Shown one piece after another: positions 26,860-43,668 of a DNA stretch of 64,000 nucleotides. The position numbers and the translations under genes were made by a program. Positions within the stretch are counted from its first letter, which is position 1; the number at the start of each line of letters is the position of its first letter. Source of the DNA: Agriterribacter humi (GTDB taxonomy: Bacteria > Bacteroidota > Bacteroidia > Chitinophagales > Chitinophagaceae); the NCBI RefSeq assembly GCF_009192765.1, contig NZ_VOHQ01000019.1:1-64000 (forward strand), written 5' to 3'. A model generated the notes under the pieces. The model made no database searches and was not told the DNA's origin. It worked only from the letters and a program-made list of their open reading frames with translations.

Positions 26860-27714
26860 TCAGGCCAAAGAAGCAGTCTTCTCCTTGCAGATTTTTTCGA
26901 CGATGGGTATCATTAAAGTAATTCTGTCAATAAGCATTTGTAGTTCGCCTTCTGTTATTGTAAAGTCTTCCCTGTAACGGGCATCTATATATCCCTGCTT
27001 AAGCAATTCAAACAAATGCTTTTCATGGTTGTCTGTTTCAGCCCGGAAAACATGGAATAATTCCTCTGAATAAGTTTTGGATTTTTTACGGAGCTTCCAC
27101 AGATTGTGGGTTTTCGGCTTATAATCAGTAAAAACTAATAATGTTGTATAGTAAAGACTTTCTGTTGCCTGGTGTAATTCAAAAGTTGCGATTTTTAAAT
27201 CGCCTTCATTTTTATAAAACTTTGACCCTTTTAGAAATTTCTGTCCTTGAGGAAACCAAGTATCAAAATACCGCTGTGCTTTCTCTTTCTTCTCTGAATT
27301 AGTTAGCTCTCTGGGTTCTACAAATTGCACTGTTCCCTTGTTATAAAGTAAAATACCTTCCTTCACAATATCCACCCAAAAATATTCTCCCCATCCCAGC
27401 CCTTTGTTGATGTAGTCTATTTCGTGTATTTCCATGTTCACGGGCGGCTTAAACCGTTCTGCCAGATCCATTACCCGGCTTTCCTGCACATAGGCTTTTT
27501 CGGGGTTGTTTTTTGTTACCACCAGGAAATCATAGTCGCTTATATATTCGTAAGTAGTACCCTTAGAAACATACCTGTGTTCCACAAAAGTTCCTTTTGC
27601 ATGGCTGCCAAACAGGATGATCATTTCAGGATTCACCACTTCCTTAATAATCTCCATTATTCTAATGATTTCAGCTTGTTTCTGTTCCGGTAAATGTTCC
27701 AGGGAGGTCCTCAT
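26860..27714 (-). CDS. MNT-HEPN fusion protein: nucleotidyltransferase plus HEPN domain
   Basis: A 284-aa protein. The N-terminal half is a minimal nucleotidyltransferase with GSHAKG at 36-41 and the acidic pair D60/D62 in SDYDFLVV. The C-terminal half (about 145-284) is a HEPN domain with R224-x5-H230 (RAETDNH), a spacing that fits the HEPN RNase motif Rx4-6H. In separate-gene systems such as HepT/MntA the NT domain AMPylates the HEPN toxin. Here both are in one chain. It is a single gene at the edge of the defence region, convergent with the HTH gene. Confidence 0.8.
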   Translation of the reverse strand: MRTSLEHLPEQKQAEIIRIMEIIKEVVNPEMIILFGSHAKGTFVEHRYVSKGTTYEYISDYDFLVVTKNNPEKAYVQESRVMDLAERFKPPVNMEIHEIDYINKGLGWGEYFWVDIVKEGILLYNKGTVQFVEPRELTNSEKKEKAQRYFDTWFPQGQKFLKGSKFYKNEGDLKIATFELHQATESLYYTTLLVFTDYKPKTHNLWKLRKKSKTYSEELFHVFRAETDNHEKHLFELLKQGYIDARYREDFTITEGELQMLIDRITLMIPIVEKICKEKTASLA

Positions 27715-28297
27715 GGCTATAAAGGTAAAAAATCTGTTAATACTGTCTTACATACAATTGTACAGGTTATTGATTAAAAGATAAAATAAAGATCCCGGAC
27801 AGGAATGCCCGGGATGTTGCTAACCTATGAAAAACACCAAAGAGATGTATATGACGACTTTCTATTTACAAGATATGTAAGATTTAGAGAAATTGCAGTG
27901 CCTGGTTGAAAATTTCAAATTCTTTTCAAATCTTATTTTTTCGTGGCGGGGTGGGGGAGGGAAGAGGTAATTGAGACATACCCCCAAGATGGAGTGGGGC
28001 TTTGGGCTCTATGTTGAAGTATGTTGCAACGATCCGGACAGCCAGGGGAGTTGCTAAAAAACCTGTACCGGGTCGGGCTACTACGGGTTCGCTATCGCTC
28101 CAGTGTTGCGCACGGGCCCGGCCCCGCCGCTCTACGTATTCCTGTCCCTATCCTTACCGTTCGGGTGGACGGCTGAGTCATTCAGGAGGTACTCACGGGC
28201 CTTTACAATTACTCGTATTTCCAATACAGAACTTCATGCATGTCCTAAAGTCGCAGGAACCAATGATTTTAGGTATATTCGAGAAAGGCCTATTCAC
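27715..28297. other. Intergenic region with a GC-rich island
   Basis: No convincing gene. Bases about 28015-28210 are much richer in G+C than their surroundings (for example GGGCCCGGCCCCGCCGC) and resemble dispersed intergenic repeats of Bacteroidota. The open frames across this part (28002-28301 and the 5' part of 28103-28942) have Arg/Pro-rich, non-protein-like composition. Confidence 0.45.
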
Positions 28298-28942
28298 ATG
28301 AAAAAGATTCGATCTTTTGCAAAATACATATGGAATGATCCGGTATGGAATAAAGTTTTAGCGGTTGTTATTTGTAATGGATCATCTACAATATGGTCTT
28401 TCGTTGTTGCTCAAACAACAAAATTAACATTTGTACAGGCTTTTCGAGCGTTTTGGTCTTTTAAGCTTCCTATATATTACATCTTGATTACGGTAACTGC
28501 CCTGTGCATTTTGAGCATAGCCAGATATTATCAACGAAAAAAAAAAGCGGAGATGCAGGCTAAAGAAGCAATGAAAACTCCGCTAAGGATATACTCTGCC
28601 ATTGAAATACAAAAGAATAAAGTAGGTGACCATGATATGGATGCCCTTATTGAAGCTTTAAAAACTCAAATTTTCCGATTAGGCAAAACAGGTCAAAATT
28701 ATAATGCCTTTGAAATATTTCTAAACTGGTATCCTCATTTACTAACAGGAATACCTGATCAAGTTTACGATGATAGAACAGAATTATTGATAAGATGCGC
28801 TCGAGTTCTTGAAGCGTATGGACTTATAAAACGTAAGGTGTGGGGAGCGGGTACTAATATAGATTTGTTGTTGCTGACTCCAATCGGGATTGAATTTTAC
28901 ACAAAACTTCAGCAACAATATCAAAAATCCTCACTTAAATAA
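28298..28942 (+). CDS. Membrane protein with possible C-terminal winged-helix-like domain
   Basis: A 214-aa protein starting MKKIRSFAKYIW. Two hydrophobic segments lie at about 18-38 and 53-75, then a basic linker with KKKAEMQAKEAMKT, then a soluble C-terminal domain (about 120-214). It has the pattern of a small winged helix (RCARVLEAYGLIKRKVWG, then LLLLTPIGIEFYTKL). Cytoplasmic sensor/effector membrane proteins of this type are common in defence regions, but no named family is recognised. The ATG at 28298 was chosen because the upstream frame runs through GC-rich repeat sequence. Confidence 0.65.
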   Translation: MKKIRSFAKYIWNDPVWNKVLAVVICNGSSTIWSFVVAQTTKLTFVQAFRAFWSFKLPIYYILITVTALCILSIARYYQRKKKAEMQAKEAMKTPLRIYSAIEIQKNKVGDHDMDALIEALKTQIFRLGKTGQNYNAFEIFLNWYPHLLTGIPDQVYDDRTELLIRCARVLEAYGLIKRKVWGAGTNIDLLLLTPIGIEFYTKLQQQYQKSSLK

Positions 28943-29461
28943 TTCGACTTCATATAAGAATGATGTGATGACTGTTCATTCATCCGGACTATGCCTGGAA
29001 TTAGCATTGCAAGTTGTTGAGAATCTTAGCAACACAATATTACAGCGAGGACACAAAGCCCTAAGTTGCTTTCGTTAGGTGATCTTAACCTTATAATCGC
29101 CTGCTGTTTCATTTGTTGATGACGGCTATACTCAGCCCTACTTAAAAAGATCAACAACTGAGAAAAAAAATTTTGAGTAGATAAAAAATGTTTCTATATT
29201 GGTACAAGTAATCCATCAATCTGCTGACAATCCTAAACCGTTACCCAATTTCATAATATTGTTTCGAGTACTCATCTGAATTATTCGGCGGAACTTTACG
29301 GAAAAAACTATGAACCGTTTCAAAGTGACGAAAAGCCTCGTGGTTAGCAAATTTTCAATAAGAAAATAACTGCTTTCTACTTCAAGTGCTAGTGACGGCT
29401 ATATTCAATTATAAATCTCAAGCGCTGACAACGATTAAAAATTAAATAGTTAATAAAACAT
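28943..29461. other. Region with short remnants, upstream of the MazG operon
   Basis: No intact gene. Protein-like scraps are visible on the plus strand: DDGYTQPYLKRSTTEKK ending at about 29179, AELYGKNYEPFQSDEKPRG ending at about 29343, and SASDGYIQL ending at about 29413. The sequence TGACGGCTATAYTCA occurs twice (29120-29134 and 29393-29407, one mismatch). These may be the ends of lost genes. The operon's promoter must lie in the AT-rich stretch before 29462; no clear TAnnTTTG was found. Confidence 0.3.
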
Positions 29462-30346
29462 ATGGAATTCAATTTATATCAGCAAGAAGCTGCTAGAACA
29501 ATTCAAAAAAATACCACAGACGAGCGATTGACAGAAATTGTTCCTTTTTTAGGAATAATCGGAGAAATAGGATCGGTTGTTACACAGTTAAAAATTAAAT
29601 TCAGAGATGGCAAGTCTTATGTCGCTTACAAAGCCAAACTGGCCGAGGAACTTGGTGACGTACTTTGGTACATTTCGGCAATTGCCACCCAAAACGATTT
29701 AGAATTGGAAGGAATTGCAAAAAAAAATTTAGAAAAAATTCATGACAGATTTTTAGCTGACGATCCAGATGTTTTCACAGATTTTGATTTGAAATATCCA
29801 GAAAAAGAGAGATTTCCGGATGAATTTGAAATTGAATTTCAATCGTATAAAGAAGCTGACAAAAATAAACTTAAGATTATTGACAAAAGAAATAATAAAC
29901 CAATCGGAGACCCATTAACTGATAATACTTATGAAGAAGACGGTTATCGGTTTCATGATATTTTTCATTATGGATATCTAGCTATTTTAGGGTGGTCTCC
30001 AGTATTAAGAAAGCTACTTTCCCTGAAAAGAAAGAGCAGTCCGGAAACAGATGAAAATGAAGATGGAGCTAGATCTCAAATTACGGAGGAGTTAGTATCC
30101 TTATTTATTTATCATCATGCTTTAGATCATGATTTATTAAAGTATAGCTATAGTGTTGATTCTGGAATTATAAAAAAGGTTCAAGGCTTAGTTAAAAAAA
30201 CAGAAGTAAAAGATTGTAGTGGTAAGCAATGGGAAAAAGCGATTTTAAATTCCTACGAAGTGTTTAATAAATTGCGTGAAAATGATGGAGGTAGAGTACT
30301 TGTGAGTAAGAAAAACAGGTCTCTTATCTATTTAGGGAAAAAATGA
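29462..30346 (+). CDS. MazG-like nucleotide pyrophosphohydrolase with C-terminal extension
   Basis: A 294-aa protein, first gene of a four-gene operon. The N-terminal domain (about 1-100) is an all-alpha NTP pyrophosphohydrolase: GIIGEIGSVV at 31-40 and EELGDVLWYISAIA at 62-75. The canonical first metal motif ExxE reads E35-I-G-S38, so one of the usual four acidic ligands is missing, while E62/E63 and D66 of the second are kept. The C-terminal half (about 130-294) is the conserved extension of a MazG-like subgroup (RFHDIFHYGYLAILGWSPVLRKLL). Such enzymes clear or supply nucleotides; here it may act on a modified nucleotide (inference). Confidence 0.8.
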   Translation: MEFNLYQQEAARTIQKNTTDERLTEIVPFLGIIGEIGSVVTQLKIKFRDGKSYVAYKAKLAEELGDVLWYISAIATQNDLELEGIAKKNLEKIHDRFLADDPDVFTDFDLKYPEKERFPDEFEIEFQSYKEADKNKLKIIDKRNNKPIGDPLTDNTYEEDGYRFHDIFHYGYLAILGWSPVLRKLLSLKRKSSPETDENEDGARSQITEELVSLFIYHHALDHDLLKYSYSVDSGIIKKVQGLVKKTEVKDCSGKQWEKAILNSYEVFNKLRENDGGRVLVSKKNRSLIYLGKK

Positions 30347-30370
30347 TTTAGTAAGAGAAATAATTCAAAG

Positions 30371-31375
30371 ATGCAAGCAAATCGAATAACGCTGCTAAGT
30401 AAAAAGAGAAAGCCCAAATCAAGCAAAGTATATGATACGTATTGGAAATTTGCGTCTGAACGACAAAATATTTTCTTTAATCGAATAGAAAAACCAATGC
30501 AACATCCGTGGACAAAAGATTTTGTTTTAAGAAACTTTAAATTTACTAATGCTTATCGGGTGAGCGATAGGGTAAGCCAATACCTGATTTCTAATATTAT
30601 ACAAAACGGTAATCAAAATATCGACGAAGTTTTTTTTCGAATAATACTTTTTAAGCTATTTAATAAAATAGAAACATGGGAATATCTCCAAAAACAAGTT
30701 GGTGAACTTTTTTATTCTGATTTCAAATTTGAACGTTATTCAGAAGCTTTAGCTCTATTAAAACTTCGCGGACAAGCTATTTATTCTAACGCTTACATTA
30801 TGGCATCAGGTAAATCTTCATTTAATCATGAATATAAACATGATAATCATTTGAGGCTTATCCAAGCCATGATGCAGGATAGTATTGCTAGGAAATTGCA
30901 GGAATGTAACAGTATGAAACAAGCATATGAAATCTTATTAAAATTTCCAACGATAGGATCTTTCTTAGCCTATCAATATGTAACGGATATAAACTATAGC
31001 AATATTACTATGTTTTCTGAGATGGAGTTTGTAAAAGCTGGTCCTGGGGCAAAGGATGGAATTAGAAAATGCTTTTCAGATTACGGAGATTATTCTGAGG
31101 AAGACATAATAAAACTTGTTTGTGAAACCCAAGAAAATGAATTTGAAAGATTAGGACTTGAATTTAAGACATTGTGGGGGCGAAGGCTACAACTTATAGA
31201 CTGTCAAAATCTATTTTGTGAAGTAGATAAATATTCCCGTGTGGTTCACCCTAATGTGATTGGTCATTCCAAAAGGACTAGAATCAAGCAAAAATTTCAA
31301 CCAAGTTCATTGATTCCTATCAACTATAGCTTCCCTGAGAAATGGAATATTAAAATAGATAGAGTTTATGGATAG
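30371..31375 (+). CDS. Nucleotide kinase-like protein, 5-hmdU DNA kinase helical-domain family
   Basis: A 334-aa protein matching by eye the all-helical family named 5-hmdU DNA kinase helical domain, which is linked to hypermodified thymines in phages. Family features seen: YDTYWKFASERQNIFFNRI near the N-terminus, WTKDFVLRNFKFTNAYRVSDRVSQYL at about 47-72 (split here by wording, continuous in the protein), and GPGAKDGIRKCF in the C-terminal half. No P-loop is present, so kinase activity is not shown by the sequence. The gene begins 24 bp after the MazG-like gene and overlaps the TIR gene by 8 bp. Confidence 0.8.
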   Translation: MQANRITLLSKKRKPKSSKVYDTYWKFASERQNIFFNRIEKPMQHPWTKDFVLRNFKFTNAYRVSDRVSQYLISNIIQNGNQNIDEVFFRIILFKLFNKIETWEYLQKQVGELFYSDFKFERYSEALALLKLRGQAIYSNAYIMASGKSSFNHEYKHDNHLRLIQAMMQDSIARKLQECNSMKQAYEILLKFPTIGSFLAYQYVTDINYSNITMFSEMEFVKAGPGAKDGIRKCFSDYGDYSEEDIIKLVCETQENEFERLGLEFKTLWGRRLQLIDCQNLFCEVDKYSRVVHPNVIGHSKRTRIKQKFQPSSLIPINYSFPEKWNIKIDRVYG

Positions 31376-31850
31376 ACATAACATATTTATTAGTCATCAT
31401 GGCAAAGATGATGATAAAGTTCAAGCCCTAAAGGAACGACTTAAAAGCGCGGGGTATAATGTTCATAACTATTCGGTTGATAGTACCAAACATAAAGATG
31501 GCAGGCGTCCTTCTGACCAAGTTATTGCAAGATACTTGCGTATGCAGGTCCGTTGGGCTGGATCTCTTATTTGCTTAATTGGAAAAGATACTTTTAATAG
31601 ATCGTGGGTTAATTATGAAATAAGACAGGCTCATTTACAAGGGAAGAAAATAATTGGAGTTTATGCTCATGGATATAAGGACACGCCATTGCCTGATGCA
31701 TTTAAAAAATATGGTAATTATAGCTTTGGATGGAATTCAATAGATAAAATTGGAGATGCGATTTCGGGCGAACCTCTGCCTTTTGAAAACCCAGATGGAA
31801 CTCCAAGTACACCAATATTCAATATTAAAAAAATTAAATGCAAAAAATGA
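31368..31850 (+). CDS. TIR-like (ThsB-type) domain protein
   Basis: A 160-aa single-domain protein with the Rossmann-like TIR fold of the MTH538/ThsB type: start NIFISHHGKDD, helix LKERLKSAGY, and the late motif SWVNYEIRQA, with W80 and E84 in the place of the conserved W/E of ThsB proteins. The glutamate is the expected NAD-cleaving residue. It is the third gene of the operon and overlaps both neighbours (8 bp and 4 bp), so it is translated with them. It could be the effector of this operon or an extra ThsB for the ThsA encoded nearby. Confidence 0.85.
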   Translation: MDRHNIFISHHGKDDDKVQALKERLKSAGYNVHNYSVDSTKHKDGRRPSDQVIARYLRMQVRWAGSLICLIGKDTFNRSWVNYEIRQAHLQGKKIIGVYAHGYKDTPLPDAFKKYGNYSFGWNSIDKIGDAISGEPLPFENPDGTPSTPIFNIKKIKCKK

Positions 31851-32452
31851 ATTTCTATTCTTATAAATTAGATCATGATTATGGGCTTGCGCCAAACCCA
31901 TTTGGAGAACACTGTACACTAGCTGTTTGTAAATCTAGTATTCGAAAAAATAAGAATCTAACAATTAATGATTGGGTAATTGGCACAGGTAGCAAAGCAC
32001 TGGGGTATGAGTACTCAGTTATTTACGCTATGCAAGTGCAGGAAATAGTAACTTTTGATGAATACTGGAGTGATAAAAGGTTTGATTATAAAAAACCCGT
32101 TTTAAATGGCAGCCTGGTGCAAATGTACGGTGACAACTTTTACCATACAGATAAAACAACTGGCGAATGGATTCAAGAAGAATCTGCTCACTCTGTTGTA
32201 GATAAGGAAGCCCACCTAGAAACAGATACAAATGGTAAAAACGTTTTAATATCGAAAAGATTTTGGTACATGGGAGATAAGGCAAAAAAGATTCCTGACC
32301 ATCTAATAAAAATATGCAATAAAGGAAGAAATATGAAGTACCGAACTATTGATAATAAATTAGGAAATGAGTTTATTCTATGGATGAAAGAGAATTTCGC
32401 TATAGGTATTAGCGGAGATCCAATTAGTTGGATGGAATATTATAAATTATAA
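31847..32452 (+). CDS. Nucleotide modification associated domain 2 (Nmad2) protein
   Basis: A 201-aa protein whose N-terminus FYSYKLDHDYGLAPNPFGEH and next strand CTLAVCKSSIRK, followed by DWVIGTGS, match the Nmad2 family by eye. That family was defined by its association with DNA base modification genes. Its biochemical role is not established. The ATG at 31847 overlaps the TIR stop codon in an ATGA; an in-frame ATG at 31838 is possible. It is the last gene of the operon and converges on thsB. Confidence 0.8.
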   Translation: MNFYSYKLDHDYGLAPNPFGEHCTLAVCKSSIRKNKNLTINDWVIGTGSKALGYEYSVIYAMQVQEIVTFDEYWSDKRFDYKKPVLNGSLVQMYGDNFYHTDKTTGEWIQEESAHSVVDKEAHLETDTNGKNVLISKRFWYMGDKAKKIPDHLIKICNKGRNMKYRTIDNKLGNEFILWMKENFAIGISGDPISWMEYYKL

Positions 32453-32495
32453 ATGATATGTAAAATGTCTTCAAAAACCCCTTTTACAAAAAGAC

Positions 32496-32975
32496 CTATC
32501 GGTATTTTATTGCATCTTCAATCCAATTTTCAAGATTACTTGCGATATCATTATAAGCAGTGTAGGAATTGGGATTGTAACATTTGACTAAACTAGAGAG
32601 CCTTCGCCCGTCTTTAAGAAAGATTTGTTCGAATGGATTTGATCCTTGACGACATATGCCCGCGCGTGGACATTTTATATTATGAATGTAGATACCTACA
32701 ACAGCTTTGCCATCATTCCAAGCCTTTTCAATCTCGTATTTTACCCATTTTCTATAAGAGGTTTCTGCACCGACTAATACAGCTAAACAACTTTTATATT
32801 TCATGGTGTCATCAATCCACCTTTTAACTGATGCGTCTCCGCCTCTTTTTACAGTTTCCCACTCATTTACAGAAACGGGCTCATTTCCTTCTAATACACC
32901 CATGTTTCTAATTTGTTGTACTCTAAATACATCATTATCAAAGTGAAAGCTATAAAATATTTGTCTCTTTGCCAT
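32496..32975 (-). CDS. thsB: Thoeris TIR protein ThsB
   Basis: A 159-aa TIR-like protein (MTH538/DUF1863 type). It opens with QIFYSFHFDND, continues with VQQIRNMGV and KRWIDDTMKYKSCLAVLVGAE, and carries the conserved YRKWVKYEIEKAW with W77 and E81. In type I Thoeris, ThsB senses infection and makes a cyclic ADP-ribose-type signal from NAD. It lies 2 bp downstream of thsA in the same direction and converges on the Nmad2 gene. Confidence 0.92.
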   Translation of the reverse strand: MAKRQIFYSFHFDNDVFRVQQIRNMGVLEGNEPVSVNEWETVKRGGDASVKRWIDDTMKYKSCLAVLVGAETSYRKWVKYEIEKAWNDGKAVVGIYIHNIKCPRAGICRQGSNPFEQIFLKDGRRLSSLVKCYNPNSYTAYNDIASNLENWIEDAIKYR

Positions 32976-32977
32976 TG

Positions 32978-34438
32978 CTATGCTTTTTGTAATATACTAA
33001 TTGCTTTTATAGTATTTGTTATTATTTCTTCTTTAGAGATATTATCCTTTCCCAATTCTTTGATTGCATTATGCAGGTCTGCATTATCAGGATAATAAGT
33101 ATTTAGGTTACTCATTACTTTGTCCCATAAAGTTTTAGAAACAGAACCTGTTGCACCAATTGGAATAGGAATAACAAAATGCTTTAAGCAAGTATCAAAC
33201 TCTTCTTCCATACCATTTGAATTGACAATCTTACCCTCAACTAACTTATTTCCGAAAACAAAAATTGCAATTCCTGCTTTTGTGATCATATCGTTTCGAT
33301 AATCTGTCCATATTTCGGAAATGCTTTTAGTACCTGATTGTATTTGGGGAAATGGCCTAAGAATAAGTAAATCATCTAAATTTCTGTAGTTAGAATTAAG
33401 TTTGTAGTCCAAAGCTCCGTTTATGACGATACTTCCAATTCCTAAACCATATCCTGAAACAATTTTATACTCTTTCTCTGCTAATTTGTAACTCAATGAA
33501 TGTATGAGGTCTTTAGCATCTGCTTCTTTGTAAGGAAAATAATCAGCGGCAGCACCTGAAATAAAAATATTTCTTCTTTTCACCCGTTTTTCTATTTCTG
33601 AAAGAATGAATGTTATTTCAGAATAATCTTTAATCATTACCGCATTTATGCCATATCTTATTAAATCATCAATTTTTAGTTCCTGTTTAACTTTTGCATA
33701 TAAATAATCTTCTTTGTTTTCATCTGCAGATTTGGTTGTATCGTTAAAGTCGCTTTCTGCAATTTCTTTAAAAAAGAAAAAGTGGGTTGGCGTGTTATCT
33801 TTTAGCAAGATTTTTATTCTGCCTAAAATATAATCCAAATTGGGGTCGTCAAAACTAAATCCAATGAACAAGAATGTTTTTGATAACAAGTCACCTCTAA
33901 GTGCAGTAGAAAATAGTTCTTTCTTATCGTTGTAAGTCTCATAATCATCTTTTGTCAGTACTGCTTCATCAGGCGAATCTTTATCACCATGCATTTTGTA
34001 AACAATCGCATCCTTCTTCTTTATGTTACTTGCAAAATCTTCATTTCTAAGTTTACGCTCAACAGTTTTTCCGACTGTTTCCAAAGTTCTTTCGATGAGT
34101 TGATCGTAATTTGTTGTCCAATATGTATCTATTCCAATTCGAGATAAAATTTTATGGTTTTCGCTACCCTCTTTCAGTGTGGTAAATTCATTTTTGATTT
34201 TGTTGTTTATTTTCCCCCTTTTGAATTTATTAAAATGGTATTGTGCAATTGAAATTAAATCGTGCTCTTTTTCAATATTTAGTTTGAGTTCATCAGCTAA
34301 ATCTTTCAATAAACCTCTCCAATTCACAAAGCCCAAAGATGCCGATAGCCCTGCGCCTGCAAAAATTGCAGCATCCCCGTTGTTAATTTCAGTAACAAAA
34401 GCGTTTATAAATGATCTCTGTTGTTGTGTAAATTCCAT
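32978..34438 (-). CDS. thsA: Thoeris effector ThsA (SIR2 plus SLOG)
   Basis: A 486-aa protein close in length to known ThsA (about 476). The SIR2 domain covers about 1-285, with GAGLSASLG at 28-36, WTTNYDQ with N110, and MHGD with H150 as the catalytic pair. The C-terminal SLOG/STALD domain (about 290-486) has NIFISGAAAD and GYGLGIGS at 329-336; this domain binds the ThsB signal and opens the NADase. The outcome is NAD loss and abortive infection. The start at 34438 is preferred over 34456 by the family N-terminus. Confidence 0.93.
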   Translation of the reverse strand: MEFTQQQRSFINAFVTEINNGDAAIFAGAGLSASLGFVNWRGLLKDLADELKLNIEKEHDLISIAQYHFNKFKRGKINNKIKNEFTTLKEGSENHKILSRIGIDTYWTTNYDQLIERTLETVGKTVERKLRNEDFASNIKKKDAIVYKMHGDKDSPDEAVLTKDDYETYNDKKELFSTALRGDLLSKTFLFIGFSFDDPNLDYILGRIKILLKDNTPTHFFFFKEIAESDFNDTTKSADENKEDYLYAKVKQELKIDDLIRYGINAVMIKDYSEITFILSEIEKRVKRRNIFISGAAADYFPYKEADAKDLIHSLSYKLAEKEYKIVSGYGLGIGSIVINGALDYKLNSNYRNLDDLLILRPFPQIQSGTKSISEIWTDYRNDMITKAGIAIFVFGNKLVEGKIVNSNGMEEEFDTCLKHFVIPIPIGATGSVSKTLWDKVMSNLNTYYPDNADLHNAIKELGKDNISKEEIITNTIKAISILQKA

Positions 34439-34513
34439 AATTATTTTTTTAGCCAATCATCCAACCAAATATTTTTCTCATTAGGATAAATTAGTCTGAA
34501 TATGTTATCGTAT

Positions 34514-34709
34514 TGTAAATTCCGTTGATGTTGACCCGGGTGTAAATTCTGTCATGTTGACCCACCCGCTTTGCGGGGCAATAATTGTAAGAGCTTAATG
34601 ATAGATAAAAATACAAATGTTATTGATTCGTTTTTAGTTTTCTTCTTCTTAAGGATTCGCCTTTTAGTTCTGTGCGGTGTGCACAAGCTGTCAGTCTGTC
34701 AAGGATGGC
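34514..34709 (-). mobile_element. IS21 family remnant 1 (right end plus istB 3' end)
   Basis: The stretch begins with an IS21-type terminus (TGTAAATTCCGTTGATGTTG, then repeated TGTTGACC units up to 34565) and holds the last 29 codons of istB on the minus strand (34620-34709), reading [19 protein letters not shown] and RRRKLKTNQ-stop. It is cut at 34709, where the terminus of remnant 2 starts, so the second element appears to have inserted into the first. Confidence 0.8.
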
Positions 34710-34920
34710 TGTAAATTCCGTTGATGTTGACCCGGGATTCCGGGATGTTGACCCACCCCGCTTTGCGGGGCAATAATTGTAAGAGCTTAATTATAGATAA
34801 AAATACAAATGTTATTGATTCGTTTTTAGTTTTCTTCTTCTTAAGGATTCACCTTTTAGTTCTATGCGGTGTGCGCAAGCTGTCAGTCTGTCAAGGATTG
34901 CATCGGCGAGCGTAGGATCA
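34514..34920. repeat. Direct repeat of about 195 bp from the two IS21 ends
   Basis: 34514-34707 and 34710-34898 are near-identical copies (few substitutions such as GATTCGCC/GATTCACC and TGTGCGG/TATGCGG) arising from the two IS21 remnants described separately. Confidence 0.75.
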
Positions 34921-35029
34921 TTAATATACTCATGCCATTGGTAATTGTGATGTTATTATAATACTTTTTTTACCATAACGATCTTCCAGTAATTGTAATA
35001 ATGTAAGGCGCATGTTGTATGGTTTAAAT
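34710..35029 (-). mobile_element. IS21 family remnant 2 (right end plus longer istB 3' part)
   Basis: A second IS21 terminus (34710-34757) with TGTTGACC repeats is followed by a longer piece of istB on the minus strand (34812-about 35029). The reading is LTLLQLLEDRYGKKS, then ITSQLP, a frameshift near 34942, then [19 protein letters not shown] and the same C-terminus as remnant 1. The remnant abuts the sce7726 gene. No istA or left end is present. Confidence 0.8.
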
Positions 35030-35627
35030 GATATCGCATATATTTGGAACTATTATGCGAGACCCAATTATCAGACATGCCTTTCACAGTTCTGTGCTAT
35101 TGTCGGCACATGCAGATAATAATAGTTGTGTGGTGGATGAGCTTGTCTTGAAAAATGGCCTTGTTCGGGCGGATATTGCTGTGCTAAACGGCTGTCTAAT
35201 CGGTTATGAGATTAAAGGTGAAAAGGATACGTTATTAAGGCTTCCACTACAGGTTGCCGTGTACAGCGAGGTGTTTGATAAAGCATATCTTATCATAAGT
35301 GAAAAACATTTGCCAAAAGCAATAGAACAGATTCCTGACTGGTGGGGTATTTACCTTGCAAAAAAGTCTAAAAGTCTTCCGGCTAAATTTAAAAGAGTAC
35401 GGGCTGCTAAATTTAATAAGTATCAAAACCCCTATACAATTTTGCAACTTCTTTGGAAAGTAGAAGCATTAGAGTTTGCAAACTCCTTGCTGCCAGAACA
35501 ACTTAACCCAAGAACTACCAAACGAAACATATACGAAGTAATCTGCCAAAATTGCTCCGTAAACATAGTTAGCCAAACAGTCACTAAATATCTTAAGCAA
35601 CGAAGGAATTGGCGTATAGATCAGTAA
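35028..35627 (+). CDS. sce7726 family protein
   Basis: A 199-aa protein with the sce7726 family layout: an N-terminal helix region, then VDELVLKNGLVRADIAVLNG and LIGYEIKGEKDTLLRL, a pattern (D...E-x-K) like that of PD-(D/E)xK nucleases. The middle holds KAYLIISEKHLPKAIEQIPDWWGIYLA. Genes of this family often sit beside a beta-family (sce7725-type) gene, as here, where the two converge with 35 bp overlap. It begins at the edge of an IS21 remnant, so its own promoter may be displaced. Confidence 0.8.
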   Translation: MISHIFGTIMRDPIIRHAFHSSVLLSAHADNNSCVVDELVLKNGLVRADIAVLNGCLIGYEIKGEKDTLLRLPLQVAVYSEVFDKAYLIISEKHLPKAIEQIPDWWGIYLAKKSKSLPAKFKRVRAAKFNKYQNPYTILQLLWKVEALEFANSLLPEQLNPRTTKRNIYEVICQNCSVNIVSQTVTKYLKQRRNWRIDQ

Positions 35628-36678
35628 CGACTTTTGTAATATGATGATTATGTCCTACTTTTTTCCAAACAGTTGGATTTCCTGTTTTTGTCAGTCCATC
35701 AGAACAATTTTTTAGATGCAGGTCACCTGCAGAAAAAGGAGGCCCCATATAATATTGTGATTTTACAATTTGGGTTGCCTGATTAATGTATTGCTTAAAG
35801 TCTTCAGAATCTTTCAGAGCTTTTCCTTTAATGACATACCAGATTTTATCCGCAGTGTAACGTATATTAGCACTTCTTTGCATTTTAGTAGGGTCAAACT
35901 CAAAATATCCTGGTGCTATAATGCTGTAGTCTCCATAATTAATTGATCTATCAAATTCCCTGTTACCTAATTTAATCTTAAGTGTTAAGAAGAACTCCCA
36001 ATCATTACGAACAATATTATTAATACCTGTTTTCAACATGCCGGTTTCAGGAAATGCTCCTCCGCAGATAGTAAAAGTTTTCCAGTCATTAAAATTGGGA
36101 AATATTTCTAACTGATCTAAGATTCCATCGGAAAAATCATCAATGTTGCTAAAGTCAGAGTTCTGAAGATCTAAAATTAAATGAATATCAGCTGGCACCA
36201 TCTCAACCTTATTCAATAGGCTTTTTAATTTAAATTCAAATTCTGGGTCAGTTATATCTTCTATCGAAACTCTTACTCCTATATCGGCGTAATTGATACG
36301 AAAATTGAGTTTTACGGCATCAATAATATGATCTATAGAATTCAATCTCAAAACAGGAATACATTTTGTACCAATAGCGGATGTAAGAATGCTAACAATA
36401 TAGGTTATGGGTACTTTGCCACCTGGTCGTTCATTATCAATCATGTAAGTGTCAATGAACGATATTTGTTGTGGCCATTTTTTTAAGTATCTCTTACAAA
36501 TACTGTTTATATGTTCCTCAATGGATTTAGGCTTGGCATTTTTTTCATTATCCCATTCCCTTGGCGTTACTTCGAATAGCGGTACAACCTTTTTCTTAGT
36601 CTTTTCGTCTAATTTTTCCAACCCGTCAAATTCACCTTGTTTAGTTTTCAACACGGGCAAATAGAAATTTGCTTCCAT
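35593..36678 (-). CDS. Beta family protein (T4 beta protein-like, sce7725 type)
   Basis: A 361-aa protein that fits the beta-protein family: start NFYLPVLKTKQGEFDGLEKL, VVPLFEVTPREWD, then a TIM-barrel-like alternation (ISFIDTYMI, CIPVLRLNS, IHLILDLQNSD), and the ending KVGHNHHITKVVTDLY. The function of the bacterial members is unknown; the family is named after a phage T4 protein. It lies 12 bp downstream of the XRE-ImmA gene in the same operon and overlaps the sce7726 gene end to end. Confidence 0.8.
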   Translation of the reverse strand: MEANFYLPVLKTKQGEFDGLEKLDEKTKKKVVPLFEVTPREWDNEKNAKPKSIEEHINSICKRYLKKWPQQISFIDTYMIDNERPGGKVPITYIVSILTSAIGTKCIPVLRLNSIDHIIDAVKLNFRINYADIGVRVSIEDITDPEFEFKLKSLLNKVEMVPADIHLILDLQNSDFSNIDDFSDGILDQLEIFPNFNDWKTFTICGGAFPETGMLKTGINNIVRNDWEFFLTLKIKLGNREFDRSINYGDYSIIAPGYFEFDPTKMQRSANIRYTADKIWYVIKGKALKDSEDFKQYINQATQIVKSQYYMGPPFSAGDLHLKNCSDGLTKTGNPTVWKKVGHNHHITKVVTDLYANSFVA

Positions 36679-36690
36679 TTTAACCTCCTT

Positions 36691-37956
36691 TTATTTTAAT
36701 TGATTTGAAAATAAGTTTCTTACTTTTCCTTGCTCCACCAACTCTGTAAATAAAAAATATTTACCTGTCTCTCTTCTAATACGACCAGCAATTAATGCAG
36801 CATGAATTTTTAAAGATTTAGCTAAATTTAGAATGGTTGTCTCGGTTGGATTAAATCGTACTAATGATTTTCTCCATGTTTCATTAGGAATAAGTGCATT
36901 GAGAGAAAAATCGTCTGCTTCTTTTTCAATGCCTTCGGATTTGGTATCTAAGTCGTCAAATATGGCGTAAATCTTATCGGATAAATGTAGTTTCACATGT
37001 GCGATCTCGTGAAATAATACAAACCAAAAATTGTCAAGTCTATCATGACGTAATGTTAAAGCTATTATCGGTTTATCCTTTTCGATTTGAATTGCTGCTC
37101 CATCCAAGAATGTTCCATCTAAATGTGATTCAATGACGAACTTTATCCCACTTGCTTTCAAATATTCGCCAGCTTTTACAGGGCCGTCATCATAAGCACT
37201 AAGCAATCTCAAATCTTCGAGCCATTGATCATTTATGTTATCAACAACAAAATCTACATCTAATACTTGTTCTCTTGACTTTTTGATTACTTGAGTATAC
37301 CAAGCTTCTAAAGCATAATCATTTAATGTTGATCCAGATCGAACGTTTTTCTTAGTCAGGCTTGTTTTCATTGCGAAAGAGCCTTGAAAAAAAGTTTCAA
37401 GCAAATTTTTTGACTCTAAAACTGCATCGTTCAAAGTGCCTGAGAAGTTTCCAAACCAACCACGTTGGAACATTTGCTTGAATGGATAATTGTTGATATC
37501 AAACTTTTCAGGGGCATGCATTTCCTTAATAAGTACGTCACCCTGGATACGTATGCCTAGCACCTTTGCAATTTTTAAAAGAGTTTTTACACTCGCAGTT
37601 TCATATCGTTCTGCTTCGTACCGTTGAATTTGCTGCATCTTAAGATCAAGTTTTGTAGCCAATTCGGATTGTGTTAAATTATTAGCTATGCGGGCTTTTA
37701 TTAACGATAAGGGTAATTCTTCTATACTTGAAATTTCAGTTACAGCGATCTTACCAGCTTTCAAATCTTCATACTCATTTACCTGCGTTATTAGATCATT
37801 AAGTTGGTATTGTATTGCATCTTTTTGAGCCTGAATTATCAAAGGATGAACATCTTTGACCTCTGCAGTAGATGTCAAGAAAATGCTATCCAATGATTTC
37901 TTGAAATTCTCAATCTGATTTTTTACGATTTTATATTGTCTATCATTAGTAATCAT
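36691..37956 (-). CDS. XRE family regulator fused to ImmA/IrrE metallopeptidase
   Basis: A 421-aa protein. An N-terminal helical region (about 1-80) is followed by an XRE helix-turn-helix (about 83-140, RIANNLTQSELATKL, QIQRYEAERYE) and an ImmA/IrrE zinc peptidase domain (about 240-400) with HEIAH at 316-320. In phage and mobile elements such proteins relieve repression by cutting a repressor; here HTH and protease are in one chain, so it may be both regulator and sensor. It overlaps the upstream gene by 4 bp. Confidence 0.9.
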   Translation of the reverse strand: MITNDRQYKIVKNQIENFKKSLDSIFLTSTAEVKDVHPLIIQAQKDAIQYQLNDLITQVNEYEDLKAGKIAVTEISSIEELPLSLIKARIANNLTQSELATKLDLKMQQIQRYEAERYETASVKTLLKIAKVLGIRIQGDVLIKEMHAPEKFDINNYPFKQMFQRGWFGNFSGTLNDAVLESKNLLETFFQGSFAMKTSLTKKNVRSGSTLNDYALEAWYTQVIKKSREQVLDVDFVVDNINDQWLEDLRLLSAYDDGPVKAGEYLKASGIKFVIESHLDGTFLDGAAIQIEKDKPIIALTLRHDRLDNFWFVLFHEIAHVKLHLSDKIYAIFDDLDTKSEGIEKEADDFSLNALIPNETWRKSLVRFNPTETTILNLAKSLKIHAALIAGRIRRETGKYFLFTELVEQGKVRNLFSNQLK

Positions 37957-38420
37957 ATTGCACCTCCTTTCATTATGTGATTAAACAATCTGATGATGCC
38001 TTTGGCTTTTCCAGATTCTTTGTCTGTCTGGAAAAAATTTAAAAAAGGCTGCATGCTATTACCTTCAATAGAGGTAGAGGGAAAAAACTCACCCAAATAT
38101 TTTTGCTTTTGAGGACGCGTGCCATTCGAAAAGTCCAAAAAGACGGGATCTAAAGCGTATAGATTAACAAATTTTGGATCCCAGCAAATTTCATAGTCAT
38201 TTGGTAGTGGTTTAGCGGTAACATAACTACCATCTAAGTATACCTGTGTGCAGCCACTTTTAAACAAATTATCTAAGGCGCGCTCCATTCCACGGAACAA
38301 GGCTTCTCTTCTTGCATTAATTACATATCTGTTAAACACCTCCACCAGTGTTGAATCATAGATCCCTGGAGGAAGCAATGCCCAAGAAGAGTTTCTAACG
38401 TTTTTAAAATCAGGAATCAT
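37953..38420 (-). CDS. DUF6932 family protein (nucleotidyltransferase-like)
   Basis: A 155-aa protein with the sequence CTQVYLDGSYVTAKPLPNDYEI at about 57-78, in which GSY at 64-66 and D75/E77 recall the GS-(x)-DxD motif of minimal nucleotidyltransferases; the second acidic position is Glu. This matches DUF6932 by eye. The start at 38420 is chosen because a longer start at 38447 lies inside the -7 box. It is the first gene of the module and overlaps the next by 4 bp. Confidence 0.75.
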   Translation of the reverse strand: MIPDFKNVRNSSWALLPPGIYDSTLVEVFNRYVINARREALFRGMERALDNLFKSGCTQVYLDGSYVTAKPLPNDYEICWDPKFVNLYALDPVFLDFSNGTRPQKQKYLGEFFPSTSIEGNSMQPFLNFFQTDKESGKAKGIIRLFNHIMKGGAI

Positions 38421-38442
38421 AACACAATAAATATGTTGTGTT
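38421..38442. promoter_or_regulatory. Operator palindrome of the DUF6932/ImmA operon
   Basis: AACACAA (38421-38427) and TTGTGTT (38436-38442) form an inverted repeat with an 8-bp spacer, directly between the -7 box and the start codon. It is a likely site for the XRE protein of the operon. Confidence 0.6.
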
Positions 38443-38444
38443 AC

Positions 38445-38452
38445 CAAAGTTA
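38445..38452 (-). promoter_or_regulatory. -7 box (TAACTTTG) of the DUF6932/ImmA operon
   Basis: The minus strand reads TAACTTTG, matching TAnnTTTG, 24 bp before the ATG. Transcription would start inside the palindrome. Confidence 0.55.
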
Positions 38453-40395: not shown

Positions 40396-40707
40396 GTGGA
40401 AGAACAAACAGTTGAAATGAGTTCTGCATTACCCGGTAAATCATCCCGCGATACAACTAAAATATCTCTTCGCCAACTTGTTTATCCCTTCGGGGGTATT
40501 GCTTTGCAAGGTCAACCTGTTATTTACCACATACAGCCACTATATGAAAACAAACACCGCAAAGACCACTTTGATACCCGCTGCTGGTATTACAACATCA
40601 TTACCGACTCTTACCCCCATGTTTCGGGGAGAAGCTTGATTGAACTTTGGTACTACTGTGACTTTAGCTATTGGAATGCTACTGCGGGCGTATGTGCAGA
40701 ATGCTGA
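40396..40707 (+). pseudogene. Remnant of an unrecognised gene (C-terminal part)
   Basis: An open frame of 103 codons with normal protein composition in its second half: YHIQPLYENKHRKDHFDTRCWYYNI, and the end YWNATAGVCAEC-stop. The N-terminus is poor. The last 17 codons and following bases recur at 43511-43611 (DFSYWNAAAGACAKC-stop), so it is part of a repeated element. I do not recognise the family. Confidence 0.35.
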
Positions 40708-40757
40708 TTAAGTTCAGTCACAGCTCTTTGCGTCCTTCGCCCTCTGCGCGCTTTGCG
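40656..40757 (+). repeat. Direct repeat, copy 1 (about 100 bp)
   Basis: CTGTGACTTTAGCTATTGGA to GCGCGCTTTGCG is repeated at 43511-43611 with about 80-85 percent identity by eye. It covers the end of the preceding remnant, a shared stop, TTCAGTCACAGCTC, and a REP-like TTTGCGTCC...GCGCTTTGC tail. Confidence 0.7.
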
Positions 40758-41020
40758 TGAACCCTCAAGCTTACGGAAGAGCTTGATTAAGCTAACAAAT
40801 AAATTGCATTTAGATGTTTGACATTATTGTATTTGTATTTATATTTATGAACTTTCAGTCCGCTCCCTCATGATCTCTTCGTTTTATTTTGTCCAGTATG
40901 ATTATGATTTGCTATACACTGTTTACTTCGAGGTAGTTTCTCTCTATCCAATATCTTCTCAAGATGAATTTTAAGAATTTATTATTTGAGTATGTTATAA
41001 TCATCATAAACCCATTAACA
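40708..41020. other. Intergenic region before the papain-like gene
   Basis: Contains the end of repeat copy 1 (to 40757) and AT-rich sequence. An in-frame ATG at 40964 would lengthen the following gene by 19 residues. No clear promoter seen. Confidence 0.4.
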
Positions 41021-41698
41021 ATGCCATCAAAATATGTTTTTGGATGTCTTGTAGCAATTACCTTGCTCTGCAAAAGTTTTAACAGCGTAGGCCAGGAGCA
41101 AGCACTTGATATTGATCCGGTTTTACAGGAAACACCCGTGTGGTGTTGGGTGAGTTGCGGAGAGATGATCTTTAGATATTACGATATTTGCAACATAAAT
41201 CCTGCGGGCAATTTCCAGTGCGGTATTATTGCCCTTCTGGGGCCTCAATGCAATGCTAATTGCTTTGCGTGTCCTTATTCTGCTGAGTCTACACAAAGGA
41301 TAATTAATATGCTTGATCAATATCCGAGATTTGCTCAGCAAGTATGCGGTAGTTCAAAACAAAGTGTTAGATGTACAAATGTATACGGCGCCCTTTCGCA
41401 ACAGCAAATAATGGATGATATTGACAACGGGTGGCCTATTCTGGCCGGCATTAACCCCTCAGGCGGCGTATATGGAACAGAATCTCAACATGCGGTATTA
41501 ATTATTGGATACGAAGTGGAAGACGAAATTTTTAACTTGATCATAAACGACCCATTCCCTTACCATGCGGTTTCAAGTTCTGCAAGCCCATATGAACAAT
41601 ATTCTGGTGAGGAAATTATCTCAGGACAATATAAAATTCCTTATGCCAGATTTAGAACAAATCTGGGTTGGAATAGAACCTTAAAGAGTATCCGCTAG
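41021..41698 (+). CDS. Secreted papain-like cysteine protease (C39/AvrRpt2-like)
   Basis: A 225-aa protein with a signal peptide (VFGCLVAITLLCKSFNSVGQ, cleavage near residue 24). The mature chain has the papain-like core: ETPVWCWVSCGEMIFRYY with the nucleophile at C42, SQHAVLIIGYE with H157, and IINDPFP with N176/D177. The spacing between C and H (about 115 residues) fits the Peptidase_C39_2/AvrRpt2 group. Seven further Cys may form disulfides. It is 40 bp upstream of the TIR gene in the same direction. The start at 41021 is favoured by the signal peptide; 40964 is possible. Confidence 0.8.
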   Translation: MPSKYVFGCLVAITLLCKSFNSVGQEQALDIDPVLQETPVWCWVSCGEMIFRYYDICNINPAGNFQCGIIALLGPQCNANCFACPYSAESTQRIINMLDQYPRFAQQVCGSSKQSVRCTNVYGALSQQQIMDDIDNGWPILAGINPSGGVYGTESQHAVLIIGYEVEDEIFNLIINDPFPYHAVSSSASPYEQYSGEEIISGQYKIPYARFRTNLGWNRTLKSIR

Positions 41699-41738
41699 CC
41701 CAATTCCTTATTTATTTGCATTCCAAAATATATATTGC

Positions 41739-42566
41739 GTGGCAGATATTTTTATAAGCTATAAGAAAGAAGAAAGAAAACTTGCCCAAAACTTGGCCGC
41801 AAAATTTGAAAAAAAAGGCTGGTCGGTGTGGTGGGATCATAAACTCCTTGGTGGCAATCCTTATGATAAACAAATACAGCAGGAGTTAACAGCAGCTAAG
41901 GTTGTCATCGTCATCTGGTCTAAGCTCTCTGTTGAATCAGACTTTGTCCGCGATGAGGCCCGGGCTGCCCAGGGAAGAGGTGTTTTGATTCCTGTTTCTT
42001 TTGATAATACTAAAGCGCCATTAGGATTTGGCATGATGCAGGTAGTTTATTTAACCGGAACTGTTATCGGCTCTAATGATTATAAAAAACTTTACGACAG
42101 TATCGAAAATAAAATGGGGGGACTCGTAAAAGACAGCGCCGGAGACCCCCCAACCGGGATTTCGAAACCTATTGTTGTAGCCGGCGTAATATTATTGGCT
42201 CTTTTGGTGGGGGGTATTGCCTATTACATTAAAGGGAAAAACACCCCACCAAAAAACATTTCAAACAAGGCCTTAAAGATTAAAGCAGGTCAGGTCAACC
42301 AGATGATTATTTTCAATAGGTACGATGATATTTTACCAATCATGAATCCAATTACAAAAGCAACACTTACAAGACAGGTTTTTCAGGCAGGAGTGGATAC
42401 AGTCAATCACCGTTATAATAATTTCCAAAGACCTATCGATACAATTTTTGTCAAGGATCTGCCATTTGATTATTACCAGATAAGAAATCAGTATCAGAAT
42501 GGCGTCAATACAAATAAAATAATTTTTGACCAGGAGAAAAGGGTATATGGAATCTTCGTCGAATAA
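41739..42566 (+). CDS. TIR domain protein with one TM segment and DUF3887-like C-terminal domain
   Basis: A 275-aa protein with a GTG start. The TIR domain (about 1-130) begins DIFISYKKEERKLAQNLA and has SVWWDHKLLGG and SDFVRDEARAAQ, with E73 as the expected catalytic glutamate. A single TM helix at 145-164 follows, then a C-terminal domain (about 175-275) homologous to the stand-alone lipoprotein encoded convergently at 42598-43008. Likely topology: TIR inside, C-terminal domain in the periplasm. That arrangement suggests an outside signal triggering NAD cleavage inside (inference). Confidence 0.85.
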   Translation: MADIFISYKKEERKLAQNLAAKFEKKGWSVWWDHKLLGGNPYDKQIQQELTAAKVVIVIWSKLSVESDFVRDEARAAQGRGVLIPVSFDNTKAPLGFGMMQVVYLTGTVIGSNDYKKLYDSIENKMGGLVKDSAGDPPTGISKPIVVAGVILLALLVGGIAYYIKGKNTPPKNISNKALKIKAGQVNQMIIFNRYDDILPIMNPITKATLTRQVFQAGVDTVNHRYNNFQRPIDTIFVKDLPFDYYQIRNQYQNGVNTNKIIFDQEKRVYGIFVE

Positions 42567-42597
42567 TTACTTTCAACCTGCAGTTCTATATTTCAAA

Positions 42598-43008
42598 TTA
42601 ATTTTTTGCAGGTATAGAAAACATATGCACTAGTAAACCCGATTCATCAAATTGGAAGGTCGTAGTCCTTATACCGTGCAGATATTGATTTCTAACCGAC
42701 CATATAACCACCCCATTCACGGTGGTTTCACTGGTGTCAATTGGATGCACAAATTCTCCTATCATGGCTTTGGTGGTGGAATCAACATTGTCGAAAAGTT
42801 GCTGAGTGATTTTTTGCTTCAGACTTTCAGACATCATCGCCCGAATCTCTTCGTATCTGTCGAGATTTACCAGTTCATTCGCTTTTCCTGCTTTGTGTTT
42901 TAAAGCTGCTTTAAGGTCGTCAGCGTAACAACTGAGGAATAGACTAATTCCGCAAATAAGCACAACGTAACAATAATGCCTGGTGCAGCCAACCAATAAT
43001 CTATACAT
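42598..43008 (-). CDS. DUF3887-like lipoprotein, paralogous to the TIR protein's C-terminal domain
   Basis: A 136-aa protein with a signal ending in the lipobox LFLSC. The mature part aligns with the TIR protein's tail: ALKHKAGKANELVNLDRYEEI against ALKIKAGQVNQMIIFNRYDDI, PIDT in both, and SVRNQYLHGIRTTTFQFDE against QIRNQYQNGVNTNKIIFDQ. The family resembles DUF3887. It converges on the TIR gene with a 31-bp gap. It may compete with, or bind the same ligand as, the TIR protein's sensor domain. Confidence 0.8.
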   Translation of the reverse strand: MYRLLVGCTRHYCYVVLICGISLFLSCYADDLKAALKHKAGKANELVNLDRYEEIRAMMSESLKQKITQQLFDNVDSTTKAMIGEFVHPIDTSETTVNGVVIWSVRNQYLHGIRTTTFQFDESGLLVHMFSIPAKN

Positions 43009-43420: not shown

Positions 43421-43510
43421 AATTTTAAATTTTTGTATTAATAATCAGCAAAATTCTTCATTGCAACCGATTTTTGGACTGCTGCTGCTCCGGAACCTTT
43501 AACATAAAGA

Positions 43511-43611
43511 CTGTGACTTCAGTTATTGGAATGCTGCTGCCGGCGCATGTGCAAAATGCTGATTAGTTCAGTCACAGCTCCTTTGCGTCCGTTGTCCTTT
43601 ACGCGCTTTGC
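43511..43611 (+). repeat. Direct repeat, copy 2
   Basis: Second copy of the element at 40656-40757: CTGTGACTTCAGTTATTGGA to ACGCGCTTTGC. It includes codons for DFSYWNAAAGACAKC and a stop, but no open frame leads into it. Confidence 0.7.
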
Positions 43612-43668
43612 CTGCCCGAATGATACGGTCGGGCGGGCGTGAAACCCGGATCTGGGCAGGTTAAATAC

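What the first reader, a model, noticed from the sequence alone, without database searches (positions are those of the whole stretch)
41021..43008. TIR protein with a periplasmic-type domain, its lipoprotein homologue, and a secreted papain-like protease
The TIR protein has one TM and a C-terminal domain that aligns over about 95 residues with a convergent lipoprotein; shared words are KAG, RY(D/E)(D/E)I, PIDT and RNQY. A secreted cysteine protease precedes the TIR gene by 40 bp. Inference: an outside event, perhaps cleavage or ligand capture, is passed to a TIR NADase inside, with the lipoprotein as decoy, immunity factor or co-sensor. I know of no named system of this kind.
Basis: partly seen in the sequence, partly recalled or inferred. 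Interest (0 to 1): 0.68.

Follow-up and report, generated by a model that had tools for sequence, protein, structure and literature searches.

The report
Membrane-anchored TIR protein with lipoprotein twin
A bacterium of the Bacteroidota carries a receptor-shaped immune enzyme, with a TIR domain inside the cell and a small ligand-type domain probably outside, next to a secreted look-alike of that outside domain; the receptor shape is common in this family, but this outside domain and its look-alike were found nowhere else.

Summary
At 41739-42566 (+) lies a TIR protein (TIR_2, E 1.6e-19; the position of the catalytic Glu is E73) with one transmembrane helix and a C-terminal domain that aligns without gaps over 96 residues with the convergent predicted lipoprotein at 42598-43008 (z 23 against shuffles). 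A papain-like C39/C70 protease with a signal peptide ends 40 bp before the TIR gene. The shared domain is DUF3887, an NTF2-like fold whose relatives here nearly all follow an export signal.

(1) TIR-TM-ectodomain is a common architecture: 22 of 116 TIR ORFs surveyed in the family have it, with many different ectodomains. (2) The protease does not co-occur with the TIR gene: its three relatives elsewhere have other neighbours, one a Kiwa system. (3) The DUF3887-TIR fusion and its lipoprotein twin were found in no other genome searched (147 of the family, 396 of the order), so they can be neither confirmed nor refuted as a unit. (4) Charges flanking the helix do not support the assumed topology.

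Most likely this is a membrane-tethered TIR NADase gated by an exported NTF2-like sensor, with the lipoprotein as paralogous partner or decoy. The protease may be a bystander.

The parts
41021..41698 (+). secreted papain-like cysteine protease (C39/C70 type), signal peptide then catalytic Gln36, Cys42, His157, Asn176/Asp177; membership in the unit doubtful
   Evidence: Pfam C39_2 37.1 bits against cut-off 24, C70 20.9 against 19; QETPxWCW, QHA and NDPFPY conserved with G641 relative
41739..42566 (+). TIR - single TM - DUF3887-like protein, 275 aa, GTG start
41739..42083 (+). TIR domain, residues 1-115, predicted cytoplasmic NADase
   Evidence: TIR_2 71 bits against cut-off 28; profile hits NADase TIRs AbTIR, Cat1, SARM1 in PDB
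41955..41957 (+). codon of E73, putative catalytic glutamate
   Evidence: Glu in 116 of 116 TIR ORFs of the family; invariant in alignment A5
42171..42227 (+). transmembrane segment, residues 145-163
   Evidence: hydropathy scan; K/R 2 before, 4 after
42270..42557 (+). C-terminal DUF3887-like (NTF2-like) domain, residues about 178-273
   Evidence: HHalign against 18 DUF3887 proteins: prob 94.6, E 7e-8, 97 columns; helix x3 - strand x4 in model, low confidence
42598..43008 (-). DUF3887 predicted lipoprotein, 136 aa, paralogue of the TIR C-domain; putative lipobox FLS-C27
   Evidence: Pfam DUF3887 32.8 bits against cut-off 31.8; z 23.5 to TIR C-domain
40655..40759 (.). left copy of a 105-bp direct repeat that brackets the three genes
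   Evidence: 87% identical to right copy; only two copies at this similarity in the genome
43510..43614 (.). right copy of the 105-bp repeat

Best explanation
A single-pass, inner-membrane TIR enzyme works like a receptor. SHOWN by sequence: a TIR domain with the NADase glutamate, one hydrophobic segment, and a C-terminal DUF3887/NTF2-like domain that is a paralogue of a separately encoded exported protein. INFERRED: the C-domain lies in the periplasm, dimerises or binds a small envelope-derived ligand (cell-wall fragment, peptide or lipid) as NTF2-like pockets do, and clusters the cytoplasmic TIR domains so that they cleave NAD+, arresting or killing the cell or making a messenger. The lipoprotein, built on the same domain, is a partner in the envelope. 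It most likely competes by hetero-pairing or by binding the same ligand, keeping the TIR off until the envelope is disturbed (for example by phage). The protease is probably an independent gene; if it belongs, it would generate or remove the ligand.
For: TIR_2 and catalytic Glu. Single TM. C-domain and lipoprotein homologous and each other's nearest relatives among 147 family and 396 order genomes. C-domain is divergent DUF3887. 28 of 29 DUF3887 proteins of the family carry a hydrophobic export signal right before the domain, and the 29th has one at an internal start. Literature: DUF3887 is NTF2-like (4HYZ), consistently exported or lipid-anchored, proposed to bind small ligands; such DUFs are linked through TM to intracellular kinases (PMC3924330). 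TIR-TM-ectodomain is recurrent in the family, 22 of 116 ORFs. A related TIR-TM protein is conserved in 5 of 12 congeners in an apparent operon with an outer-membrane protein, so TIR linked across the membrane to exported partners is a maintained design.
Against: Flanking charges favour the opposite topology (2 K/R before, 4 after). No orthologue of the fusion, so conservation of the pair cannot be tested. The full-length fold failed (pLDDT 40) and the domain model is weak (pLDDT 50). No complex prediction was possible. A motif CYADD next to the lipid cysteine resembles, but does not meet, the surface-export signal (LES) of PMC5080379 (no K at +3, no Q at +2); if the lipoprotein faces outward it could not touch a periplasmic domain. 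Defence is inferred from neighbourhood only, and GC differs: cluster 39-41%, adjacent Thoeris 32%, PD-Lambda-2 34%.
Confidence: 0.45

Rival explanations
1. Unlinked neighbours. A TIR-TM gene picked up an exported DUF3887 domain by fusion with a copy of the adjacent lipoprotein gene. The lipoprotein has its own envelope job and the protease is an unrelated accessory gene. There is no three-part (and perhaps no two-part) system.
For: Protease relatives have unrelated neighbours. Convergent orientation of the lipoprotein gene. BLAST similarity of the pair runs into the TM / signal-peptide region, as expected of a fusion of a whole lipoprotein gene. ORF-poor, repeat-rich flanks.
Against: The two copies have diverged to about 30% yet both keep intact frames and the same motifs, which suggests both are used. 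All three genes lie between the same repeat pair, unique in the genome at this similarity.
Confidence: 0.35
2. Non-catalytic signalling receptor: the TIR domain is a scaffold that recruits other TIR proteins of the cell for envelope housekeeping, not a killing NADase.
For: TIR-TM-TTR proteins sit in a conserved genus locus beside a second TIR protein, TPR-S proteins and an OMP, which looks like multi-TIR signalling. The genome has 8 TIR_2 matches.
Against: The position of the catalytic Glu is kept in all 116 TIR ORFs. The closest solved structures are mostly NADase-type TIRs, though animal receptor TIRs also match.
Confidence: 0.12
3. The full trio: the secreted protease activates or inactivates the outside domain or its lipoprotein decoy, and the cut is passed to the TIR.
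For: 40-bp gap and same strand as the TIR gene. The cluster is bracketed by repeats. Precedent: the sister NTF2-like family DUF3828 is encoded in operons with papain-fold NlpC/P60 peptidases (PMC3924330). The closest protease relative also lies in a defence locus, beside Kiwa.
Against: No co-occurrence in any of the three other genomes that carry a protease relative. The protease is not NlpC/P60 by Pfam.
Confidence: 0.08

Closest known systems
DUF3887 / NTF2-like extracytoplasmic sensor proteins (PF13026; 4HYZ; PMC3924330)
   Same: same domain, exported; such DUFs are in other proteins linked through TM to intracellular signalling domains such as kinases
   Different: here the domain is at the C-terminus of a TIR protein and has a separate lipoprotein paralogue next door; no TIR link is reported in the passages of that paper I read
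TIR-TM-ectodomain proteins of the same bacterial family (this survey, unnamed)
   Same: N-terminal TIR with Glu, one TM, C-terminal domain beyond the membrane; TIR 44% identical to the CarboxypepD_reg type of the same genome
   Different: those carry CarboxypepD_reg, WG, Sel1, WD40, FGE-sulfatase or unclassified domains; I did not look systematically for lipoprotein twins of their ectodomains
Thoeris ThsB
   Same: TIR fold, weak PADLOC/Pfam hits to the TIR part only
   Different: no adjacent ThsA; a real Thoeris pair is at 32496-34456; ThsB hit E 0.0013; membrane-anchored with an extra domain
Animal Toll/IL-1 receptors with decoy receptors
   Same: works-like resemblance only: outside sensor, single TM, inside TIR, possible soluble or anchored decoy of the sensor
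   Different: opposite domain order, unrelated ectodomain, no evidence of descent

Membership tests
TIR domain (PF13676) NADase type | profile score over curated cut-off | tested here: met
   71 bits against 28
TIR domain (PF13676) NADase type | catalytic glutamate | tested here: met
   E73 invariant in 10-row alignment, Glu in 116 of 116 ORFs
TIR domain (PF13676) NADase type | NAD+ hydrolysis | not testable with these tools
   needs assay
DUF3887 (PF13026), lipoprotein | profile score over cut-off | tested here: met
   32.8 against 31.8 bits
DUF3887 (PF13026), TIR C-domain | profile score over cut-off | tested here: not met
   15.9 against 31.8 bits; related through the lipoprotein and by HHalign E 7e-8: a divergent relative, not a curated member
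DUF3887 proteins | exported location of the domain | tested here: inconclusive
   28 of 29 family relatives have an export signal before the domain, but charges around the TM of the TIR protein point the other way
Bacterial lipoprotein | signal peptide plus lipobox [LVI][ASTVI][GAS]C | tested here: inconclusive
   ISLFLS-C27 with F at -3 and L at -2; non-canonical, but the SusD protein of this window also has F at -3 (SFFSC)
Bacteroidota surface lipoprotein (LES) | K-(D/E)2 or Q-A-(D/E)2 after Cys | tested here: not met
   C-Y-A-D-D; consensus from PMC5080379
Peptidase C39-like / C70 | profile over cut-off and Gln, Cys, His, Asn/Asp residues | tested here: met
   37.1 against 24 and 20.9 against 19 bits; residues shared with relatives
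Thoeris | ThsB with adjacent ThsA | tested here: not met
   no ThsA next to this TIR gene; nearest pair is 7 kb away with its own ThsB
Known anti-phage system in PADLOC 2.0 | full-length match to a system component | tested here: not met
   TIR part only, protease and lipoprotein no hit

The most novel reading that the evidence does not exclude
A bacterial Toll-like receptor with its own decoy: an inner-membrane TIR NADase is held off by hetero-pairing of its NTF2-like outside domain with a paralogous lipoprotein, and an envelope event (protease action, phage entry or cell-wall fragment) breaks the pairing and triggers NAD+ loss inside.
Probability: 0.15. Interest if true: 0.78.

Novelty: new variant of a known kind. 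Interest (0 to 1): 0.45.

Why it matters
Characterised bacterial TIR defence proteins are thought to sense infection in the cytoplasm (general knowledge, not tested here). A TIR enzyme gated from the periplasm would be the bacterial counterpart, in working principle, of Toll and IL-1 receptors, and would let a cell respond at phage adsorption or wall damage. The family survey (22 of 116 TIR ORFs with a TM and a varied ectodomain) makes this testable as a class, and the DUF3887 case offers a built-in control, the separate lipoprotein copy of the sensor domain.

Tried and rejected
Orthologue searches in genome contigs, viral contigs (the one hit, L070, is chance), phages and plasmids gave only TIR-domain matches or nothing. 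PHROGs gave TIR-domain matches only. AlphaFold on the full protein (pLDDT 40) and on the domain (pLDDT 50) was too poor to rely on; Foldseek on the domain listed SnoaL/NTF2-like chains and 4HYZ (DUF3887) but none significant. PDB sequence profiles gave weak hits to 4HYZ/2MC8, a de novo NTF2 and the N-terminal part of PBP5/PBP2a (NTF2-like by my own knowledge), none significant. Consensus promoter and terminator counts were at chance level. Considered and dropped: Thoeris membership; PD-Lambda-2 membership; the bracketing repeat as a precursor-peptide gene (no leader, and congener copies are non-coding intergenic repeats with inverted ends). Synteny with congeners could not date the insertion: none of the window's 18-46 kb genes lies beside the TPR gene in 8 congeners.

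Full report
WHAT IS THERE. Three genes lie at 41.0-43.0 kb: a protease with signal peptide (41021-41698 +), a TIR protein (41739-42566 +, GTG start, MADIFISY) and a convergent exported DUF3887 protein (42598-43008 -).

THE SHARED DOMAIN. The C-terminal 96 residues of the TIR protein align with the mature lipoprotein without a gap: BLASTP E 1e-14; score 132 against a shuffle mean of 26 and a maximum of 51 in 2000. The lipoprotein passes Pfam's cut-off for DUF3887; the TIR C-domain alone does not (15.9 against 31.8 bits). A profile of the pair matches a profile of 18 independent DUF3887-type proteins with E 7e-8 over 97 columns, and the weak model shows the expected three helices and four strands. 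DUF3887 is an NTF2-like fold (4HYZ). Its describers found it consistently behind signal peptides, lipoboxes or TM segments, without conserved catalytic residues, and proposed extracellular small-ligand binding; in some proteins it or its sister DUFs are joined to intracellular kinases (PMC3924330). In this family 28 of 29 DUF3887 proteins have a hydrophobic export signal directly before the domain, and the remaining one has it at an internal start; most have frames of 320-450 aa, long enough for the hydrolase-type extension known from this family.

THE TIR END. E73 occupies the position of the catalytic glutamate of NADase TIRs, and that column is Glu in all 116 TIR ORFs I collected, nearly all of them from a search of 147 family genomes. 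Whether it cleaves NAD+ is inference.

TOPOLOGY. One strong hydrophobic segment (residues 145-163) separates the two ends. A TIR enzyme must be inside, so the C-domain should be outside, and its relatives are exported. But flanking charges (2 K/R before, 4 after) are the reverse of what 17 of 22 comparable proteins show. The outside location is therefore an inference from homology, not a prediction.

HOW UNUSUAL. The architecture N-TIR, one TM, ectodomain of at least 60 residues is found in 22 of 116 TIR ORFs. Ectodomains include CarboxypepD_reg/transthyretin-like, WG repeats, Sel1, WD40, Lcl_C and FGE-sulfatase domains and several without a Pfam match. The DUF3887 version was found nowhere else: not in 147 family genomes, 396 order genomes (only two weak matches to stand-alone 125-aa proteins, L040 and L041), phages or viral contigs, nor in the one genome-contig scan. 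Orthologues may still exist in genomes I could not search.

THE PROTEASE. Relatives were found in three other genomes. G641 (39%, E 3e-40) has it about 0.3 kb after a Kiwa system (KwaA E 1e-70, KwaB E 4e-85) and R-M genes. G244 and G305 have more distant ones after a sensor-kinase/regulator pair. None is near a TIR or DUF3887 gene. Its link to the TIR gene rests on 40 bp of spacing and on the shared repeat bracket.

SURROUNDINGS. From 26.8 to 38.4 kb the window is a defence island: HEPN-MNT, a MazG_C / hmdU-kinase / TIR / Nmad2 set, a complete Thoeris pair and PD-Lambda-2 genes. The trio is separated from it by 2.5 kb of ORF-poor DNA and differs in GC (39-41% against 32-34%; GyrA and GH18 genes 46-47%), so guilt by association is weak. 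A 105-bp, 87% direct repeat lies on each side of the trio (40655-40759, 43510-43614); at this similarity the genome has only these two copies and two congeners have one each, in unrelated places. This suggests the three genes arrived, or were re-arranged, as one segment.

MECHANISM. Shown: enzyme-type TIR, membrane helix, paralogous domain pair. Inferred: ligand- or partner-dependent clustering of the outside domain activates NAD+ cleavage inside, and the lipoprotein copy competes with or co-senses the ligand. I put this at 0.45, unlinked neighbours at 0.35, a non-catalytic scaffold at 0.12 and the full trio at 0.08.

A BETTER-SUPPORTED SIBLING. In 5 of 12 congeners, including this genome (contig C5), a conserved locus encodes TPR-S/TRAF-binding proteins, a TIR protein with its own N-domain, a TIR-TM-CarboxypepD_reg protein and an outer-membrane protein. 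It shows that TIR proteins joined through the membrane to exported partners are maintained in this genus, and it is the better place to test the idea.

Noticed in passing
G000:C5 (L190), L191, L192, L193, L194: Conserved locus in 5 of 12 congeners: MAP3K_TRAF_bd/TPR-S protein, TIR protein with an unassigned N-domain, TIR-TM(1-3)-CarboxypepD_reg protein, 512-aa outer-membrane protein and, in four, a second TPR-S protein. PADLOC gives only weak single-domain hits; looks like an undescribed TIR signalling system with exported parts.
   Followed up: partly
loci L076-L185: TIR-TM-ectodomain is frequent in this family (22 of 116 TIR ORFs) with very varied ectodomains (WD40, FGE-sulfatase, Sel1, WG, Lcl_C, TTR-like).
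   Followed up: yes
26860-38447: Defence island: HEPN-MNT, MazG_C + hmdU kinase + ThsB-like TIR + Nmad2 (29462-32452), Thoeris ThsB/ThsA (32496-34456), PD-Lambda-2 (35593-38447).
   Followed up: partly
29462-32452: MazG_C, HMUDK_hel, TIR and Nmad2 genes overlap or nearly abut on one strand: a modified-nucleotide-type set that includes a TIR gene.
   Followed up: no
40655-40759 and 43510-43614: 105-bp direct repeat, 87% identical, with inverted ends (CTGTGACT...AGTCACAG), bracketing exactly the three genes; two copies in the genome, one each in two congeners.
   Followed up: partly
L060 9356-12000: Secreted papain-like protease gene directly after KwaA/KwaB (Kiwa) and R-M genes in another genome of the phylum (G641).
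   Followed up: partly
L074, L075: Secreted C39-like protease after a sensor-kinase/regulator pair and beside a ~165-aa conserved gene, in two genomes of another family of the order.
   Followed up: no
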